This document shows positions 1 through 8,435 of a DNA stretch of 12,325 nt, one piece after another. The translations under genes and the position numbers were made by a program. The notes under the pieces are model-generated. The model saw nothing but the letters and a program-made list of their open reading frames with translations, was not told the origin of the DNA and did not search any database. Position 1 is the stretch's first letter. Each line of letters begins with the position of its first letter. This stretch comes from Bacteroidota bacterium. GTDB taxonomy: Bacteria; Bacteroidota; Bacteroidia; Flavobacteriales; Weeksellaceae. Location: positions 1 to 12,325 of the forward strand of contig JAEWOM010000129.1 of NCBI GenBank assembly GCA_023399675.1. Direction: 5' to 3'.

Positions 1-230
1 ACGCCATCCCGACCGACGGATTGTGGGATGTGGACAGAACCGACGAGCAGCAGATCGGCGCAACCTATCCCGAATTGGAAAAAATTCAAAAGGAATGGGG
101 CACCAAAACTGAAGACGATTATACAGGCAGGGATCTGGAAGTGTTCCGAATTTTTTCAAAAATGAACAGAGCTGCCCAGCATAAAATGAATCCGATTCCG
201 GTTTGTGAAATTCTGGATGAATGGAGATAA
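1..230 (+). CDS. nadE: NAD+ synthetase, C-terminal part (5' end outside window)
   Basis: This is the last ~76 codons of NAD+ synthetase, which amidates deamido-NAD+ (nicotinic acid adenine dinucleotide) to NAD+ with ATP in the cytoplasm, the final step of NAD synthesis. The frame is open from the window edge (first full codon at 3) and reads IPTDGLW, then RTDEQQIGATYPELE, then a tail with KMNPIPVCEI before TAA. The PTDGL and DEQQIGATY blocks are typical of the C-terminal region of NadE. A TTG at 21 is an internal codon, not a start, because the family match continues upstream of it. The N-terminal ATP-pyrophosphatase part is outside the window, so the glutamine- or ammonia-dependent type cannot be fully settled; the C-terminus resembles the short ammonia-dependent form. 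The gene is followed within 5 nt by a hairpin repeat that may also serve as its terminator. Confidence 0.9.
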   Translation, partial: AIPTDGLWDVDRTDEQQIGATYPELEKIQKEWGTKTEDDYTGRDLEVFRIFSKMNRAAQHKMNPIPVCEILDEWR

Positions 231-234
231 AATT

Positions 235-288
235 CCCCTCCTTTGGAGGGGTGGCAATCTGCCGGAGGCATGATTGACGGGGTGGTTT
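235..288 (+). repeat. Two-hairpin intergenic repeat (REP-like)
   Basis: The 63-nt gap between nadE and the ribonuclease gene is almost filled by two adjacent hairpins. The first has a perfect 7-bp stem, CCCCTCC (235-241) with GGAGGGG (245-251), and a TTT loop. The second pairs CAATC-TGCC (255-263) with GGCA-GATTG (267-276, T271 bulged) around a GGA loop. The motif GGGGTGG occurs after each hairpin (248-254 and 279-285). From memory, very similar CCCCTCC-TTT-GGAGGGGTGG...GACGGGGTGG blocks recur between genes in many Flavobacteriia genomes; I could not check this. It could be a mobile REP-type element, an RNA stability element or a terminator. Only the hairpins themselves are directly visible. 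Confidence 0.65.
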
Positions 289-293
289 ACAAT

Positions 294-815
294 ATGAACA
301 CAATGAATTCACAAAAAATCAAACTTTTCACCTTATTTGTAGTCGGCGCTCTTGCCGGAATGCTTGGCATGTATCTTTTCAACAACTACAAAATTGAAAA
401 AAAAGAACCTGCGCCGGTTAACCAGTCAGCTTCGCCGAGCGTTAATTCTCAAAACGCAACGTATTCAGCTCCGTCAAACAGCCGCTGGGAAATTGACGCA
501 CTTACCGACGAAGAAACAGTGGTTTCCTACGTAAAACAAAACCGGAAACTGCCCGATTATTATCTCACTAAATCGGAAGCCAGGGAAAAAGGCTGGGTTG
601 CTTCCAAAGGAAATCTATGTGATGTGCTTCCCGGAAAAGCGATTGGCGGCGATAAATTCTCAAACAGAGAGAAACTTTTACCGCAAGGGAATCAGTATTT
701 TGAGGCCGATGTAAATTACAACTGCGGAAACCGCGGCGCAGACCGAATCGTTTTTACTAAAAAGGGAGAAGTCTGGCTTACACACAATCACTATAAAAGT
801 TTTGAAAAACAGTAG
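294..815 (+). CDS. Barnase-family guanyl-specific ribonuclease, membrane-anchored
   Basis: A 173-residue ribonuclease of the barnase (N1/T1) family, which cleaves single-stranded RNA preferentially after G. Residues ~8-32 form a hydrophobic segment after a basic start, then a Pro/Ser/Asn-rich linker to ~63, then the catalytic domain (~65-173). The domain aligns with barnase almost throughout: LPDYYLTKSEA, GWVASKGNL, GKAIGGDKFSNRE, FEADVNYN, THNHYKSF. The equivalents of barnase K27, E73 (general base), R83, R87 and H102 (general acid) are K93, E137, R147, R151 and H166, so it should be active. C109 and C144 sit at barnase positions 43 and 80. No clear signal-peptidase site is seen, so a signal anchor with the domain outside the inner membrane is likely. 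The frame opens further upstream (to 243), but that lies inside the repeat; ATG 294 (or 303) is preferred. The next gene begins within 6 nt. Confidence 0.92.
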   Translation: MNTMNSQKIKLFTLFVVGALAGMLGMYLFNNYKIEKKEPAPVNQSASPSVNSQNATYSAPSNSRWEIDALTDEETVVSYVKQNRKLPDYYLTKSEAREKGWVASKGNLCDVLPGKAIGGDKFSNREKLLPQGNQYFEADVNYNCGNRGADRIVFTKKGEVWLTHNHYKSFEKQ

Positions 816-818
816 GTG

Positions 819-1454
819 ATGATGAGCGCCGGAAATAATTTCAGCAATTTCTTGAAGACGGTTTTATCGTGCTTTTTATTCTGCACAGTTTTTTCCTGTG
901 ATAACTATAAACCGGAAGCCTTGTCAACAGTCGTGAAGGAACAGGAGAAGACCATTACTATTCAGCCTTTTGATGATCTGCAGCCGGAAAAAGTACAGTA
1001 TGTTGCAAATGAAATCAGGAAAGTATATCCAAACATCAAAATACTTGCTCCGGTTCCCATTACGAAAGAGGCATATTATGCACCCAGAAACCGTTACCGC
1101 GCTGATACCATCATCCGCAAACTGCGGCAGAAAGCTGACAAAAATGAGATTATCATAGCTTTAACTTCGAAAGACATCAGCACGACGAACGCCGGTCATC
1201 CGGATTTTGGCGTGATGGGCTTAGGCTTCAGTCCCGGAAGCGCCTGTGTTGCTTCAAATTTCAGAGTAAAAAATAACGGACAGTTCGCTAAGGTTGCGAT
1301 TCACGAACTCGGACACACACAGGGATTGCCGCACTGCCCTGTAAAAACATGTTTAATGCGCGATGCTGAAGGCAAAAACCGCACAGATCAATTAACCGGT
1401 TTCTGCCCGAAATGTAAAGCATTCCTTAAAAAGAAAAACTGGAAACTCACTTAA
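819..1454 (+). CDS. Archaemetzincin-like zinc metalloprotease, lipoprotein
   Basis: A 211-residue metalloprotease-like protein. Near its C-terminus it carries HELGHTQGLPHC, then C-x4-C-x-M and C-x2-C. This is the archaemetzincin signature HExxHxxGxxHCx4CxM...CxxC: three histidines and a glutamate for the catalytic zinc, a Met-turn, and four cysteines for a structural zinc. The spacing from Met to CxxC is about 15 residues, slightly shorter than the 17 usually given. The N-terminus has a hydrophobic stretch ending in TVFSC (lipidated Cys27), so the mature protein is probably anchored in the envelope or on the surface. Family substrates are poorly known; bacterial members are mostly uncharacterised. 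GTG 816, ATG 819 and ATG 822 are all possible starts; 819 is chosen. It follows the ribonuclease stop by 3 nt, so the two are almost certainly translated from one mRNA. Confidence 0.85.
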   Translation: MMSAGNNFSNFLKTVLSCFLFCTVFSCDNYKPEALSTVVKEQEKTITIQPFDDLQPEKVQYVANEIRKVYPNIKILAPVPITKEAYYAPRNRYRADTIIRKLRQKADKNEIIIALTSKDISTTNAGHPDFGVMGLGFSPGSACVASNFRVKNNGQFAKVAIHELGHTQGLPHCPVKTCLMRDAEGKNRTDQLTGFCPKCKAFLKKKNWKLT

Positions 1455-1487
1455 GAAAAAACCAAAACCCATTCGAAAAATTCAAAA

Positions 1488-1787
1488 ATGACAACAGCTT
1501 ACATAGATTTTACAGACATCGGTGATTACGAGGAATTTTATCAACAACTGAAAGAAAAAGTTTCGCTGCCTGATTACTTTGGAGACAATCTCGATGCTCT
1601 GTATGATGTGATAACGGGCGGCATTGAACTTCCGCTGCACCTCGAATTTGTCAATATGAGTGTGGACCAGCTGGAGACATTTGAGGATTTACTCGCCACA
1701 CTGGAAGATGCCGAAGAAGAATCAGAGGATTTTACATTCACATACTGCCTCGAACAGTATGAAGATGATGATGAGCCACAGGAATGA
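1488..1787 (+). CDS. Barstar-family ribonuclease inhibitor
   Basis: A 99-residue acidic protein without a signal peptide, so cytoplasmic. It matches barstar over its first ~86 residues: LPDYFGDNLDALYDVITG corresponds to the inhibitory helix-loop of barstar. Barstar Y29, D35 and D39, which plug the barnase active site, are Y30, D36 and D40; barstar Y30 and W38 are F31 and Y39; barstar E76 aligns with D74. A strongly acidic tail (EDDDEPQE) extends past the usual 90-residue end. It lies 33 nt after the metalloprotease, on the same strand as the ribonuclease two genes upstream. The natural partner is therefore presumably that ribonuclease, inhibited if it remains in or returns to the cytoplasm. 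Orphan barstars also exist in bacteria, so pairing is inferred from gene order and the conserved interface. Confidence 0.9.
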   Translation: MTTAYIDFTDIGDYEEFYQQLKEKVSLPDYFGDNLDALYDVITGGIELPLHLEFVNMSVDQLETFEDLLATLEDAEEESEDFTFTYCLEQYEDDDEPQE

Positions 1788-1832
1788 CAAAAAAAGGACT
1801 GCTTTTTGCATCCACCTGTAAAAATTACTTTT

Positions 1833-2147
1833 ATGGACATATTAATCAATACAGACAATCACGTAGGAGCAGATCAGGCAACAAAAGATTATTACAGAGA
1901 GGAACTTCAGAGTTCCCTGGAAAGATTCAGCGACTATGTGACGCGCTATGAAGTATTTTTCTCAGACGAAGCAAGTAACAAGGAAGTGGAAGGCGATCAA
2001 AAATGTGTGATTGAAGCCAGAATAAAAGGAAGAAACCCGGAAAGAGTTTCAAGCCACGGTTCTACCCAGAAAACAGCTTTTGACGGGGCTGTCGACAAAA
2101 TAAAAGTACTGCTCGGCAGAACAATTGAGAAACAGCGCGGATATTAA
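1833..2147 (+). CDS. HPF/RaiA-like ribosome-associated protein (short form)
   Basis: A 104-residue protein resembling the single-domain hibernation promoting factor/RaiA family (sigma-54 modulation/S30EA). These bind the 30S decoding centre and keep idle ribosomes inactive in stationary phase. The visible pattern fits the beta-alpha-beta-beta-beta-alpha fold: strand MDILINTDN, helix 18-39, strands around YEVFFSD, KCVIEARIKG and RVSSHG, then helix TAFDGAVDKIKVLLGRTIEKQ. There is no C-terminal dimerisation domain as in long HPF. A TTG start at 1806 is possible in the same frame, but ATG 1833 places the first beta-strand right at the N-terminus as in the family. It starts 45 nt after the barstar gene and shares its terminator, so co-transcription is likely. 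The similarity is moderate, and the exact role (HPF, YfiA or another ribosome-binding factor) is not resolved. Confidence 0.75.
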   Translation: MDILINTDNHVGADQATKDYYREELQSSLERFSDYVTRYEVFFSDEASNKEVEGDQKCVIEARIKGRNPERVSSHGSTQKTAFDGAVDKIKVLLGRTIEKQRGY

Positions 2148-2211: not shown

Positions 2212-3858
2212 TTACTTTTCAAAAACTTCAACAATCGGATTTCCGATATTTCCGCTGGGGTTTTCAATTTTCAGCATCTGTGCAAGTGTAGGTGCGATAT
2301 CTGACATATGATACGGCTTCGAACTTTCACCTCTGTTGACGCCGGTACCGTAGAAAATCAGCGGAATATGCGAATCGTACGAATTCCAGACGCTGTGCGT
2401 GGTTCCTTTCTTGGCATAATTCGGAAGCATTCCATCGTGAGAAATAATCTGAATATCGCCGCTGCGCTGCCAGTTGTAGCCGTTAATAATTCTCGATTTG
2501 ATCGGTTCCGGAATGGCAGACTCTCCCACTTTCTTCAAATCCACGGCATATAAAACACGGGGATCTTTGTTCAACTGCGTGATGATGCGGTTTTTAATAT
2601 TCTCTTCGTTTAAACTGTTTTCCGCAATCAGGTTGTGGTTAATATAAATCTGGTAGTTATCGATTGCCCAGATTAATTTTTCATGTGCGAACTGTGCTTT
2701 CAGATCTTCTTCAAGGTTTTTCTGCAGGCCGTCGTCGAAGAATCCGGTGAGCATCTTATTGGCTCTCATGTAGCCTTCTGCATGTGCACCGCCATGATCA
2801 GCAGAGAGAAAAACCAGATAATTGCCTGCACCGACTTTTTTGTCGAGCATCGCAAAGAAATCTTCCAGATCTTTATCCAGACGCATATACGTATCCTGAA
2901 TTTCCACAGAATTCGGACCGAAAGCATGGCCCACGTAATCCGTGGAAGCCAGATTGACAGCCAGGAAATCCGTGTCAGCATTTTTACCCATCTGATATCC
3001 GTCCACTGCTGCTTCTGCCACTTTCAGAGAGAGCGTATTTCCGAAAGGAGTCGTACGAATCACATTTTTCTTCGCAGCATAGTCGGCAGCTAAGTTACTG
3101 TATGGAAAAACCGGCTGTTTTGCACTTCCGAGCAGATGTTCCCATGCAACATTATCGGCAGTACTTTCGCGGTATTCTGCGATGGGCTTCAGTGTTTTCC
3201 AACCATTAGCAACCAGTTTTTCACCCCAGTTCTGAGCATTGAAAGTCTTCAGCCACTGCGGAAGTTCATTCATATAATAAGAGCTCGTCACGAAATGGCC
3301 TGTGGCTTCATCAAACCAGAAAGCGCCGGTTGGATTATGGCCTGCAGGAAGAATTGAGGCGCGGTCTTTCAAAGAAACGCCTACTACCTTTGAGCGAAAA
3401 TTTGTGGCAATCCCAAGTTGGTCTGTGATGGTGGTACTCCAAAGGTTATGTGGTGAATGGGCACCGATTTTTTCCGAGGAAGAACCGACACCTTTTACAG
3501 ATTTGTCTGTGGTACAGTACACATTTTCACCGGTTTTACGGTCGGTCCAGTCATTACCGGCAATTCCGTGAATAGACGGAACAGAACCGGTATATGCCGA
3601 AGTATGGCCGATAGCCGTAACGGTCGGGACGTAATCAATCATCACATTGTTCAGGTTGAAACCGTCGTTCATAAGCCTGTTGAAACCGCCTTTTCCGTAA
3701 TGCCGCTGATATTTATACAGAAAATCCCACCTCATCTGATCCACCATAATTCCAACTACCAATTTAGGTTGGGTCTTCGTGGAATTTTGATTTCTTTGAG
3801 CATTAAATGACGAGAAGAGGGCAAACAGCAGTATAAAAATCTGGATTTTTCTGAGCAT
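2212..3858 (-). CDS. pafA: PafA-type alkaline phosphatase, exported
   Basis: A 548-residue exported alkaline phosphatase of the PafA type, which releases phosphate from phosphomonoesters in the periplasm or outside the cell. A signal peptide is visible, ending near FNA-Q (20/21). The active site of E. meningoseptica PafA is present throughout with a constant +2 offset. The nucleophile T79 is T81 (in PTVTAIGHTS). N100, K162 and R164, the phosphate-binding residues that distinguish it from diesterases, are N102, K164 and R166. The zinc ligands D38, D305, H309, D352, H353 and H486 are D40, D307, H311, D354, H355 and H488. Length is normal for the family (~546). A TAAATTTG box lies 22 nt upstream of the start. 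It is probably monocistronic. PafA enzymes are reported as largely phosphate-insensitive in regulation; no Pho-box-like repeat was recognised here. Confidence 0.95.
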   Translation of the reverse strand: MLRKIQIFILLFALFSSFNAQRNQNSTKTQPKLVVGIMVDQMRWDFLYKYQRHYGKGGFNRLMNDGFNLNNVMIDYVPTVTAIGHTSAYTGSVPSIHGIAGNDWTDRKTGENVYCTTDKSVKGVGSSSEKIGAHSPHNLWSTTITDQLGIATNFRSKVVGVSLKDRASILPAGHNPTGAFWFDEATGHFVTSSYYMNELPQWLKTFNAQNWGEKLVANGWKTLKPIAEYRESTADNVAWEHLLGSAKQPVFPYSNLAADYAAKKNVIRTTPFGNTLSLKVAEAAVDGYQMGKNADTDFLAVNLASTDYVGHAFGPNSVEIQDTYMRLDKDLEDFFAMLDKKVGAGNYLVFLSADHGGAHAEGYMRANKMLTGFFDDGLQKNLEEDLKAQFAHEKLIWAIDNYQIYINHNLIAENSLNEENIKNRIITQLNKDPRVLYAVDLKKVGESAIPEPIKSRIINGYNWQRSGDIQIISHDGMLPNYAKKGTTHSVWNSYDSHIPLIFYGTGVNRGESSKPYHMSDIAPTLAQMLKIENPSGNIGNPIVEVFEK

Positions 3859-7240: not shown

Positions 7241-7297
7241 CCGAAATCTAAATTTTTCGGGTGAAATTTTGGCCGGCACCGATATTCATCGTTTTTT
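7241..7297 (+). terminator. Weak terminator-like hairpins between convergent genes
   Basis: CCGAAA (7241-7246) can pair with TTTCGG (7255-7260). Further on, CGAT-attc-ATCG (7280-7291) is followed by six T. Both stems are short. They lie in the 87-nt gap between the TPR gene and the convergent NA37 gene, where termination is expected. Confidence 0.35.
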
Positions 7298-8312
7298 AAT
7301 CTTCTTTCTCGAAATACAGCCGGTAATATTTTCCTTTTTCGTCCTGCCCCGTTTCAATCATTTTGCGGTCGCCATGAACGTAGATATGGAAATTTTTGTC
7401 GAGTTTGATTATGGACTTGAAGTAACGCTGATTTTTTTTCACCGCAGAAGTATTAATCGGGAATTCTTCTGAAATGGATACCTGCATGTCCTGTTCGTAA
7501 TCGGTTTTAAAGTTTGTGAAACTCTCGATCACATGTTCGTCCTGAAGCACTTCTTTCGTGAATTCATCATAATCGAACTGCTCTTTTTCTTTAAAGAACG
7601 TTAAAGATTTGTTCAGAAAATCCGCCTGATCTGCTTTGGAAACTTCAAATTCCGTCGGCAGCTGCTTGGTGATGTAATCCTTGTAAACCTGCAGTGTTTC
7701 CTGCGTGTGGAAATATTCGTCGTCGCGCTGTTTCACTTTCAGAAAATCCTCAAACCAGTAATATTCGTCACCGTTTTTGTTGTTATCCACTACGGAAACG
7801 GCATATCCGGTTTCTTTGAAATTGTTGTAAACAAGGCAGCCTTTATCGAGTTTTGAAAGGCCGATACCAAAATCTTTCTCTACATCAAAAGTTTCATTGT
7901 TCGGGAAAATTTTGAGGAAAGGATTTTTATTTTCGGTTTTAAAAATTCCGATTTTATCAATCTTATTTCCATCGGTATTTTCCTCGCCTTCAAAATAGCA
8001 GATAAACAGTTCCCCTCCCTGCACACGTGGATTTTCAGCAGCATCATAAAGATGTTTTGCGATATTTTCGCTTTCCCAGACGAATTTAGCCGGGTCTTCA
8101 AAAATTTCGGAAACAAAGCTGTACACCGGGTTGTTCGTTAAATAAGAATCATGGTAAAACTGAAACTGTTCTTCCGATTTGAATGCTTTCAGGAAAAAAT
8201 CTGACAGAAGTTCTGCCATGTCTTCATCTAATTTCAGTTCTTCCTGAGAAACGATCAGGTTTTCCTGGTTGATTTTGTTACCTACCCTGTGAACGATTAT
8301 TTTTGACAGCAT
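7296..8312 (-). CDS. Nucleoid-associated protein, NA37 (NdpA/YejK) family
   Basis: A 338-residue protein of the NA37 family, related to E. coli YejK/NdpA, a nucleoid-associated protein of unclear function. Family-like stretches are IIVHRVGNK at the N-terminus, DEDMAELLSDFFLKAFKSEE, an IAKHLYDAA helix and GGELFICYF. Then come FGIGLSKLDKGCLVYN and a C-terminal half with conserved aromatic and charged residues. It is cytoplasmic, with no signal peptide. ATG at 8312 is chosen because IIVHRVG then follows directly; the frame opens 12 codons earlier at a GTG (8348). A weak -7-like box TATCTTCG (minus strand, plus 8332-8339) sits between the two, which also favours 8312. Residues important for DNA binding in this family are not known to me. 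Confidence 0.85.
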   Translation of the reverse strand: MLSKIIVHRVGNKINQENLIVSQEELKLDEDMAELLSDFFLKAFKSEEQFQFYHDSYLTNNPVYSFVSEIFEDPAKFVWESENIAKHLYDAAENPRVQGGELFICYFEGEENTDGNKIDKIGIFKTENKNPFLKIFPNNETFDVEKDFGIGLSKLDKGCLVYNNFKETGYAVSVVDNNKNGDEYYWFEDFLKVKQRDDEYFHTQETLQVYKDYITKQLPTEFEVSKADQADFLNKSLTFFKEKEQFDYDEFTKEVLQDEHVIESFTNFKTDYEQDMQVSISEEFPINTSAVKKNQRYFKSIIKLDKNFHIYVHGDRKMIETGQDEKGKYYRLYFEKED

Positions 8313-8435
8313 AATACACCATTTTGACGCGCGAAGATAAACATTCACAAAAAAATCAGGTGCAAAAATCTCTGTGATTTCTGAAACATATAATTCAAAA
8401 AAATACAGTTAATTTGAGGTTTAAACGCATTTATA

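What the first reader, a model, noticed from the sequence alone, without database searches (positions are those of the whole stretch)
294..1787. Ribonuclease-protease-inhibitor cassette: barnase, archaemetzincin, barstar
Seen: a barnase-family ribonuclease with all catalytic residues, a metalloprotease with the archaemetzincin signature, and a barstar with Y30/D36/D40, on one strand with 3-nt and 33-nt gaps. Known: barnase and barstar form an exported RNase and cytoplasmic inhibitor pair. Inference: an archaemetzincin placed between toxin and immunity gene may be a third functional component (processing, release or a second effector). I do not recall this three-gene arrangement being described.
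Basis: partly seen in the sequence, partly recalled or inferred. Interest (0 to 1): 0.72.

Follow-up and report, generated by a model that had tools for sequence, protein, structure and literature searches.

The report
Protease gene inside RNase–inhibitor gene pair
In one family of bacteria, a ribonuclease and its inhibitor are neighbouring genes, and many species carry a probable membrane-linked protease of unknown role exactly between them, a gene that has been lost many times, which gives a testable lead to what this little-understood protease family does.

Summary
In detail: a barnase-family RNase (294-815, with an N-terminal hydrophobic helix), an archaemetzincin with a lipoprotein-like signal (816/819-1454) and a barstar (1488-1787) lie in one row. 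It is not a quirk of this strain. In 320 genomes of one family (Weeksellaceae by named relatives) the RNase occurs in 282, with barstar after it at 240 of 247 inspected main loci. A strong archaemetzincin match occurs in 113 of 320, beside the RNase in 108 of 113. In all 94 fetched loci that have one (5 broken or remnant) it lies between RNase and barstar. Its stop overlaps the barstar start by 4 nt in 65 of 89 intact cases, and it is under purifying selection like the RNase. But 153 of 247 loci lack it, some with deletion scars, and 0 of 52 archaemetzincin loci outside the family have an RNase or barstar nearby. So it is a real but dispensable, family-specific third gene. That it sheds or trims the tethered RNase is the leading guess, untested; one indirect sequence test gave no support.

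The parts
3..230 (+). C-terminal part of NAD synthase (NadE), conserved upstream neighbour, not part of the cassette
   Evidence: TIGR00552 E 4e-4 and PF02540 E 0.015, both below the curated cut-offs; NadE upstream at 210 of 247 inspected main RNase loci
235..251 (.). palindrome CCCCTCCTTTGGAGGGG between NadE and RNase genes
294..815 (+). barnase-family ribonuclease; hydrophobic helix about 324-380, low-complexity linker about 381-512, catalytic domain about 513-809
   Evidence: hydrophobic stretch in 179 of 182 relatives, lipobox in 0 of 182
816..1454 (+). archaemetzincin (peptidase family M54), lipoprotein-like signal with Cys at 897-899, zinc motif from 1302, Cys4 site to 1415; start GTG 816 or ATG 819/822
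1488..1787 (+). barstar (barnase inhibitor family)
1806..2147 (+). HPF/S30AE-like protein, downstream neighbour; its relative was found at one fetched locus only (L149)
   Evidence: PF02482 E 1e-8
2212..3858 (-). PafA alkaline phosphatase, convergent downstream neighbour
   Evidence: NF042991 797 bits, over cut-off; reached in 46 of 250 fetched RNase stretches, many of which end before it could appear

Best explanation
This is a chromosomal RNase-inhibitor locus of the family Weeksellaceae with an optional third gene. The RNase is probably anchored by its N-terminal helix with the catalytic domain outside the cytoplasm; barstar protects the cytoplasm; the archaemetzincin is a lipoprotein-like zinc protease at the envelope whose gene is coupled to barstar. 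It entered the RNase-barstar gap probably once, is kept under purifying selection where present and has been lost repeatedly. Most likely mechanism (inferred): it acts in the envelope in the same setting as the RNase; the leading guess is that it trims or releases the tethered RNase through the flexible linker, as a modulating and not a required step. Shown: the anatomy, the linkage, the overlap geometry, the purifying selection, the repeated loss. Inferred: topology, co-translation, protease activity, substrate. The confidence is for 'functional accessory member of the cassette'; for the specific shedding step I give about 0.18-0.2.
For: 108 of 113 strong archaemetzincins in 320 genomes lie beside the RNase on the same strand (58 of 58 by coordinates; 50 of 55 fetched). 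In all 94 fetched loci with one it is between RNase and barstar. 4-nt stop-start overlap with barstar in 65 of 89 intact cases, against 1 of 85 for RNase-to-barstar where the protease is absent. Median dN/dS 0.103 for the archaemetzincin, the same as RNase (0.103), 0.066 barstar, 0.044 NadE. Zinc motif and four cysteines in 90 of 91 single-frame copies, the 91st being the short remnant L164. The block keeps its order in three neighbourhoods (acyl-CoA dehydrogenase named by eye, GNAT and DinB). Pairwise distances of the archaemetzincin follow RNase best (r 0.83; NadE 0.75, barstar 0.71; 86 rows). Lipoprotein signal by a simple rule in 71 of 89, most of the other 18 by eye, L043 has no such Cys. 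An archaeal archaemetzincin, AMZ-tk, degraded casein (passages of PMC4681839).
Against: 153 of 247 main RNase loci lack the protease, yet the RNase catalytic residues are intact in the 183 rows aligned (182 loci of the first batch plus window; H102 falls in a gap in 1). The state changes at least 40 times on the best tree; about 21 independent pairs are separated by well-supported branches (FastTree). Neither RNase N-terminal length nor barstar length changes with protease presence. The unrelated NadE gene is also a steady neighbour (210 of 247), so steady position alone is not proof of joint function. Archaemetzincins outside the family stand without RNase or barstar (0 of 52), so the protein has a role of its own. 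AmzA of Methanopyrus and of Archaeoglobus showed no protease activity in vitro (passages of PMC3427221). The window itself has a 33-nt gap, not the overlap.
Confidence: 0.5

Rival explanations
1. Passenger: the archaemetzincin is an independent envelope lipoprotein protease that once landed in the RNase-barstar gap and stays there by descent; its substrate has nothing to do with the RNase.
For: Genomes outside the family carry archaemetzincins, several with lipoprotein-like N-termini by eye, among varied neighbours without RNase or barstar. The gap also accepts a GIY-YIG nuclease gene in 28 loci. NadE, unrelated in function, is a steady neighbour too (210 of 247). Repeated loss with the pair kept. 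No linked change in RNase N-terminal or barstar length.
Against: Stop-start overlap with barstar in 65 of 89. Of the 110 genomes with RNase and a strong archaemetzincin, only 2 (G594, G303) have it away from the RNase. Block order kept where NadE or PafA is not the neighbour.
Confidence: 0.35
2. Dosage device: translation through the protease gene sets or couples barstar synthesis, so the protease gene's main effect in the cassette is on inhibitor level.
For: 4-nt overlap; in five loci that lost the protease, 16-23 codons from its 3' end remain before barstar, as if barstar's translation signals lie there.
Against: Purifying selection on the protein and complete zinc/Cys4 motifs show that the protein itself matters; of 85 protease-less loci only 2 have barstar within 5 nt of the RNase stop, so barstar works without such coupling. 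The window has a 33-nt gap.
Confidence: 0.08
3. Second effector: the protease is a delivered toxin and the cassette a two-effector weapon.
For: Zincin-like metallopeptidases occur as toxin domains in polymorphic toxins (passages of PMC3482391); one archaeal archaemetzincin inhibited growth of several bacteria (passages of PMC4681839).
Against: No further gene lies between protease and barstar (largest gap 122 nt), so no separate immunity gene there; no delivery domain in the Pfam scan; a mostly single-copy locus in 282 of 320 genomes; no PADLOC match.
Confidence: 0.05

Closest known systems
Barnase-barstar pair (Bacillus amyloliquefaciens)
   Same: RNase domain and inhibitor of the same families, with the catalytic residues and key interface acids
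   Different: RNase carries an N-terminal hydrophobic helix and linker, probably uncleaved; the two genes are adjacent and often separated by a protease gene
Archaemetzincins AmzA (Archaeoglobus, Methanopyrus), peptidase family M54
   Same: fold, zinc motif and Cys4 residues
   Different: lipoprotein-like signal, x15 instead of x17 before the last CxxC, genetic link to RNase-barstar
CarG of Myxococcus (archaemetzincin-like regulator)
   Same: bacterial member of the fold family (passage of PMC3427221)
   Different: CarG has Gln for the catalytic Glu; the window protein keeps HExxH
Simple barnase-barstar gene pairs and barnase cassettes of polymorphic toxin systems
   Same: toxin-then-immunity gene order; that paper calls simple pairs a possible incipient form (passages of PMC3482391)
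   Different: a third gene between; no trafficking modules or variable toxin tips seen; same order in a whole family

Membership tests
Barnase-type ribonuclease (PF00545) | domain match and catalytic residues | tested here: met
Barnase-type ribonuclease (PF00545) | cleaved signal peptide and free secretion, as classical barnase (recalled) | tested here: inconclusive
   hydrophobic stretch in 179 of 182, lipobox in 0 of 182; cleavage was not predicted
Barnase-type ribonuclease (PF00545) | RNase activity | not testable with these tools
   -
Barstar (PF01337) | domain match and acidic interface residues | tested here: met
   (D35-equivalent is D in 176 of 180 rows, D39-equivalent in 180 of 180; numbering recalled)
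Archaemetzincin, peptidase M54 (PF07998) | HExxHxxGxxHC-x4-C-x-M-x17-C-x2-C | tested here: inconclusive
   all residues present, last spacing x15 instead of x17; a looser pattern fits 90 of 91 single-frame relatives, the 91st being a short remnant
Archaemetzincin, peptidase M54 (PF07998) | fold | tested here: met
   predicted model only
Archaemetzincin, peptidase M54 (PF07998) | proteolytic activity | not testable with these tools
   -
Polymorphic toxin system | trafficking domains with variable C-terminal toxin and cognate immunity | tested here: not met
   short RNase with helix and linker only; present in 282 of 320 genomes, mostly once
Anti-phage defence system | match to a known model | tested here: not met
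   no PADLOC match for the three window proteins at E <= 0.01

The most novel reading that the evidence does not exclude
The archaemetzincin is a dedicated envelope sheddase or activator of a membrane-tethered barnase: it cuts the linker and frees the RNase, making the triplet a regulated RNA-degrading device and giving archaemetzincins a clear physiological substrate.
Probability: 0.18. Interest if true: 0.8.

Novelty: new variant of a known kind. Interest (0 to 1): 0.48.

Why it matters
Archaemetzincins occur in archaea, bacteria and eukarya, and one structural paper says very little is known of their biological importance (abstract passages of PMC4681839, and PMC3427221). A lasting genetic partner with a well-understood RNase and inhibitor gives a concrete candidate substrate and a natural experiment: many related genomes differ in having the protease gene beside the same pair. 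It also shows a probably membrane-anchored barnase as a gene of most members of one bacterial family.

Tried and rejected
RNase N-terminal (helix plus linker) length and barstar length against protease presence on the tree: no link. The barstar residue table at the end was not split by state through a script error and is not used. Idea that the protease goes only with helix-anchored RNases of the common type: 2 of 23 RNase loci with an unaligned N-terminus also have it, both with a disturbed RNase frame, and many of the 23 are anchored, lipoprotein-like or cut by contig ends by eye, so no rule. Weak archaemetzincin matches (14 of 127 genomes, E 5e-6 and weaker; 9 of the 14 listed, in frames of 276-350 aa) were dropped from the count of 113. 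Further weak scar matches (blastn in L148, L125, L058, L182, L154) were not counted. The one genome-contig scan gave a single locus, used only as a door to genomes. Literature searches: no paper with 'archaemetzincin' and 'barstar'; none with barnase, barstar and Chryseobacterium; 'barstar' with 'flavobacteri' gave one Streptomyces paper (listing only); barstar, metalloprotease, operon and ribonuclease gave three papers (listing only; one of them, PMC3482391, seen in passages); none for GIY-YIG, Bacteroidetes, palindromic and repetitive.

Full report
What is there. The window holds the end of an NAD synthase gene, then an RNase, an archaemetzincin and a barstar on the + strand, an HPF-like gene and, convergent, a PafA phosphatase. 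The RNase has a hydrophobic helix near its N-terminus, a low-complexity linker and a complete barnase domain (helix and linker read from the translation). The archaemetzincin has a lipoprotein-like signal (Cys28 counted from GTG 816, 90% or more conserved among 34 aligned sequences), a full zinc motif and four cysteines, and its AlphaFold model matches solved AmzA structures best. Barstar keeps Y30, D36 and D40. The finding's coordinates and gaps are right, with a small uncertainty of the protease start.

Which organism. No genome is held for the window.

How common is the pair. In a phylum-wide sample the RNase occurs in 7 of 296 genomes, 6 of them in the family used below, the seventh (G270) outside it. 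In that family it occurs in 282 of 320, mostly once. I inspected the main RNase locus of 247 of the 282 genomes (its 250 rows include 3 second copies): barstar follows in 240 of 247, NadE precedes in 210 of 247. The 150 strongest RNase places were listed; 52 further RNase genomes had a strong archaemetzincin, 50 of them fetched with their RNase; the other 80 were placed, and I held a main-copy locus for 67 of these and a second copy only for one more (G491). Some stretches are cut by contig ends.

How common is the protease and where. At E <= 0.001, 127 of 320 genomes match; 113 match strongly (E 8.8e-24 or better), the other 14 only weakly. 110 of the 113 have the RNase, 3 do not. By coordinates 58 of 58 are beside the RNase on the same strand; of the 55 others fetched, 50 are, and 5 divergent ones are elsewhere (L117, L118, L121, L122, L123). 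So 108 of 113. In all 94 fetched loci with an archaemetzincin (93 of the 108 plus the remnant L164) it lies between RNase and barstar. 15 of the 108 rest on coordinates alone, without barstar checked.

Tight order. In 89 intact cases the protease stop overlaps the barstar start by 4 nt in 65 and lies within 5 nt in 78; the largest gap is 122 nt. Where the protease is absent, RNase and barstar overlap by 4 nt in 1 of 85 and lie within 5 nt in 2 (starts taken as the nearest upstream ATG; first batch of loci). The RNase-protease distance ranges from overlap to 505 nt; the long gaps hold a GIY-YIG gene, whole or disturbed. The window, with 33 nt before barstar, belongs to the minority.

Different neighbourhoods. 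The block occurs as NadE-RNase-protease-barstar with PafA beyond, as NadE-block-GNAT-DinB (L115), and as acyl-CoA dehydrogenase (divergent)-block-GNAT-DinB (L043, L055, L204, L205) (acyl-CoA dehydrogenase and the L115 neighbours named by eye, the L204 ones by Pfam). The flanking genes differ without separating the three.

Loss. Three copies have frame breaks or stops inside (L083, L116, L119), one lacks its front half (L120), one is a short tail (L164). Five further protease-less loci keep 16-23 codons from the 3' end of the gene before barstar, 78-100% identical in amino acids to intact genes (L065, L152, L159, L167, L177). On a FastTree of RNase+barstar+NadE with 180 rows the state changes at least 40 times; 21 (169 rows) or 22 (180 rows) independent pairs are separated by well-supported branches. 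With gains made expensive the tree needs 55 losses; exchange of whole cassettes between strains could replace part of that. The cassette archaemetzincins form one side of a branch in a mixture-model tree of 30 cassette and 36 other rows, support only 70; in a larger, quicker tree (90 and 30 rows) one outside protein (L003) falls among them. One entry into the gap is therefore likely, not proven.

Selection. Median dN/dS over pairs with dS 0.1-1 is 0.103 for the protease (183 pairs), 0.103 for RNase (202), 0.066 for barstar (267) and 0.044 for NadE (397), all from loci that hold the four genes with an intact protease. The protease is thus kept for its protein. RNase active-site residues are intact in the 183 rows aligned, with and without the protease (H102 falls in a gap in one), so the RNase does not seem to depend on it.

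Outside the family. Of 58 other archaemetzincin loci (52 outside the family, 6 inside), none has RNase or barstar within the stretch held, mostly 1.5 kb each side; many of the 52 are weak, distant matches. Neighbours vary in the 13 loci I looked at one by one. So the protein has an independent life elsewhere, and the link is a family trait.

Mechanism. Shown are anatomy, linkage, overlap geometry, selection and loss. The positions fit an envelope protease made together with barstar beside a tethered RNase; cleavage of the linker is the simplest joint function, but the one sequence test I could make (N-terminal length of RNase in related pairs that differ in the protease) gave no support. I hold 'accessory functional member' at 0.5, 'passenger' at 0.35, a dosage role at 0.08 and a second effector at 0.05.

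Literature. For PMC3427221, PMC4681839 and PMC3482391 I saw passages found by term, not the whole texts. No paper in the held library joins archaemetzincin with barstar; most subscription papers are not held, so this is no proof of absence.

Noticed in passing
RNase-archaemetzincin or RNase-barstar gap of 28 loci of the first batch, such as L150, L195, L208: A GIY-YIG nuclease gene of about 102 aa, sometimes disturbed, sits in the gap (28 loci read; 30 by a looser string rule, of which 19 have inverted ends GTCATTGCGAGG...CCTCGCAATGAC). Gene-less bits of the repeat sit in the gaps of L152, L165, L177 and L183, like relics of a mobile element. Long gaps of the later batch were not checked.
   Followed up: partly
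L278, L279, L280: Second barnase copies with a lipoprotein-like signal and no barstar in the stretch held, in three genomes that also have an RNase aligned over the common N-terminus.
   Followed up: no
L059, L061, L132, L260, L261, L263, L285: Main RNase loci without barstar in the stretch held (7 of 247); in the first three, genes that look by eye like an outer-membrane efflux protein lie downstream.
   Followed up: no
window 2212-3858 and several loci: PafA alkaline phosphatase is a convergent neighbour of the cassette; RNase plus phosphatase could serve phosphorus scavenging from RNA, which is a guess.
   Followed up: no
L015-L027, L029-L031: Distant archaemetzincins stand near a gene that looks by eye like a response regulator in 16 of the 18 loci L014-L031.
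   Followed up: no
L305, L306, L309, L312, L313, L314: Archaemetzincins near genes that look by eye like HPF, EF-Tu and a tyrosine recombinase; the window too has an HPF-like gene beside its cassette.
   Followed up: no
window 235-251: Palindrome CCCCTCCTTTGGAGGGG between NadE and RNase, one copy of this pattern in the window.
   Followed up: no
window 7296-8348, - strand: 37-kD nucleoid-associated protein family (PF04245, E 5e-33).
   Followed up: no
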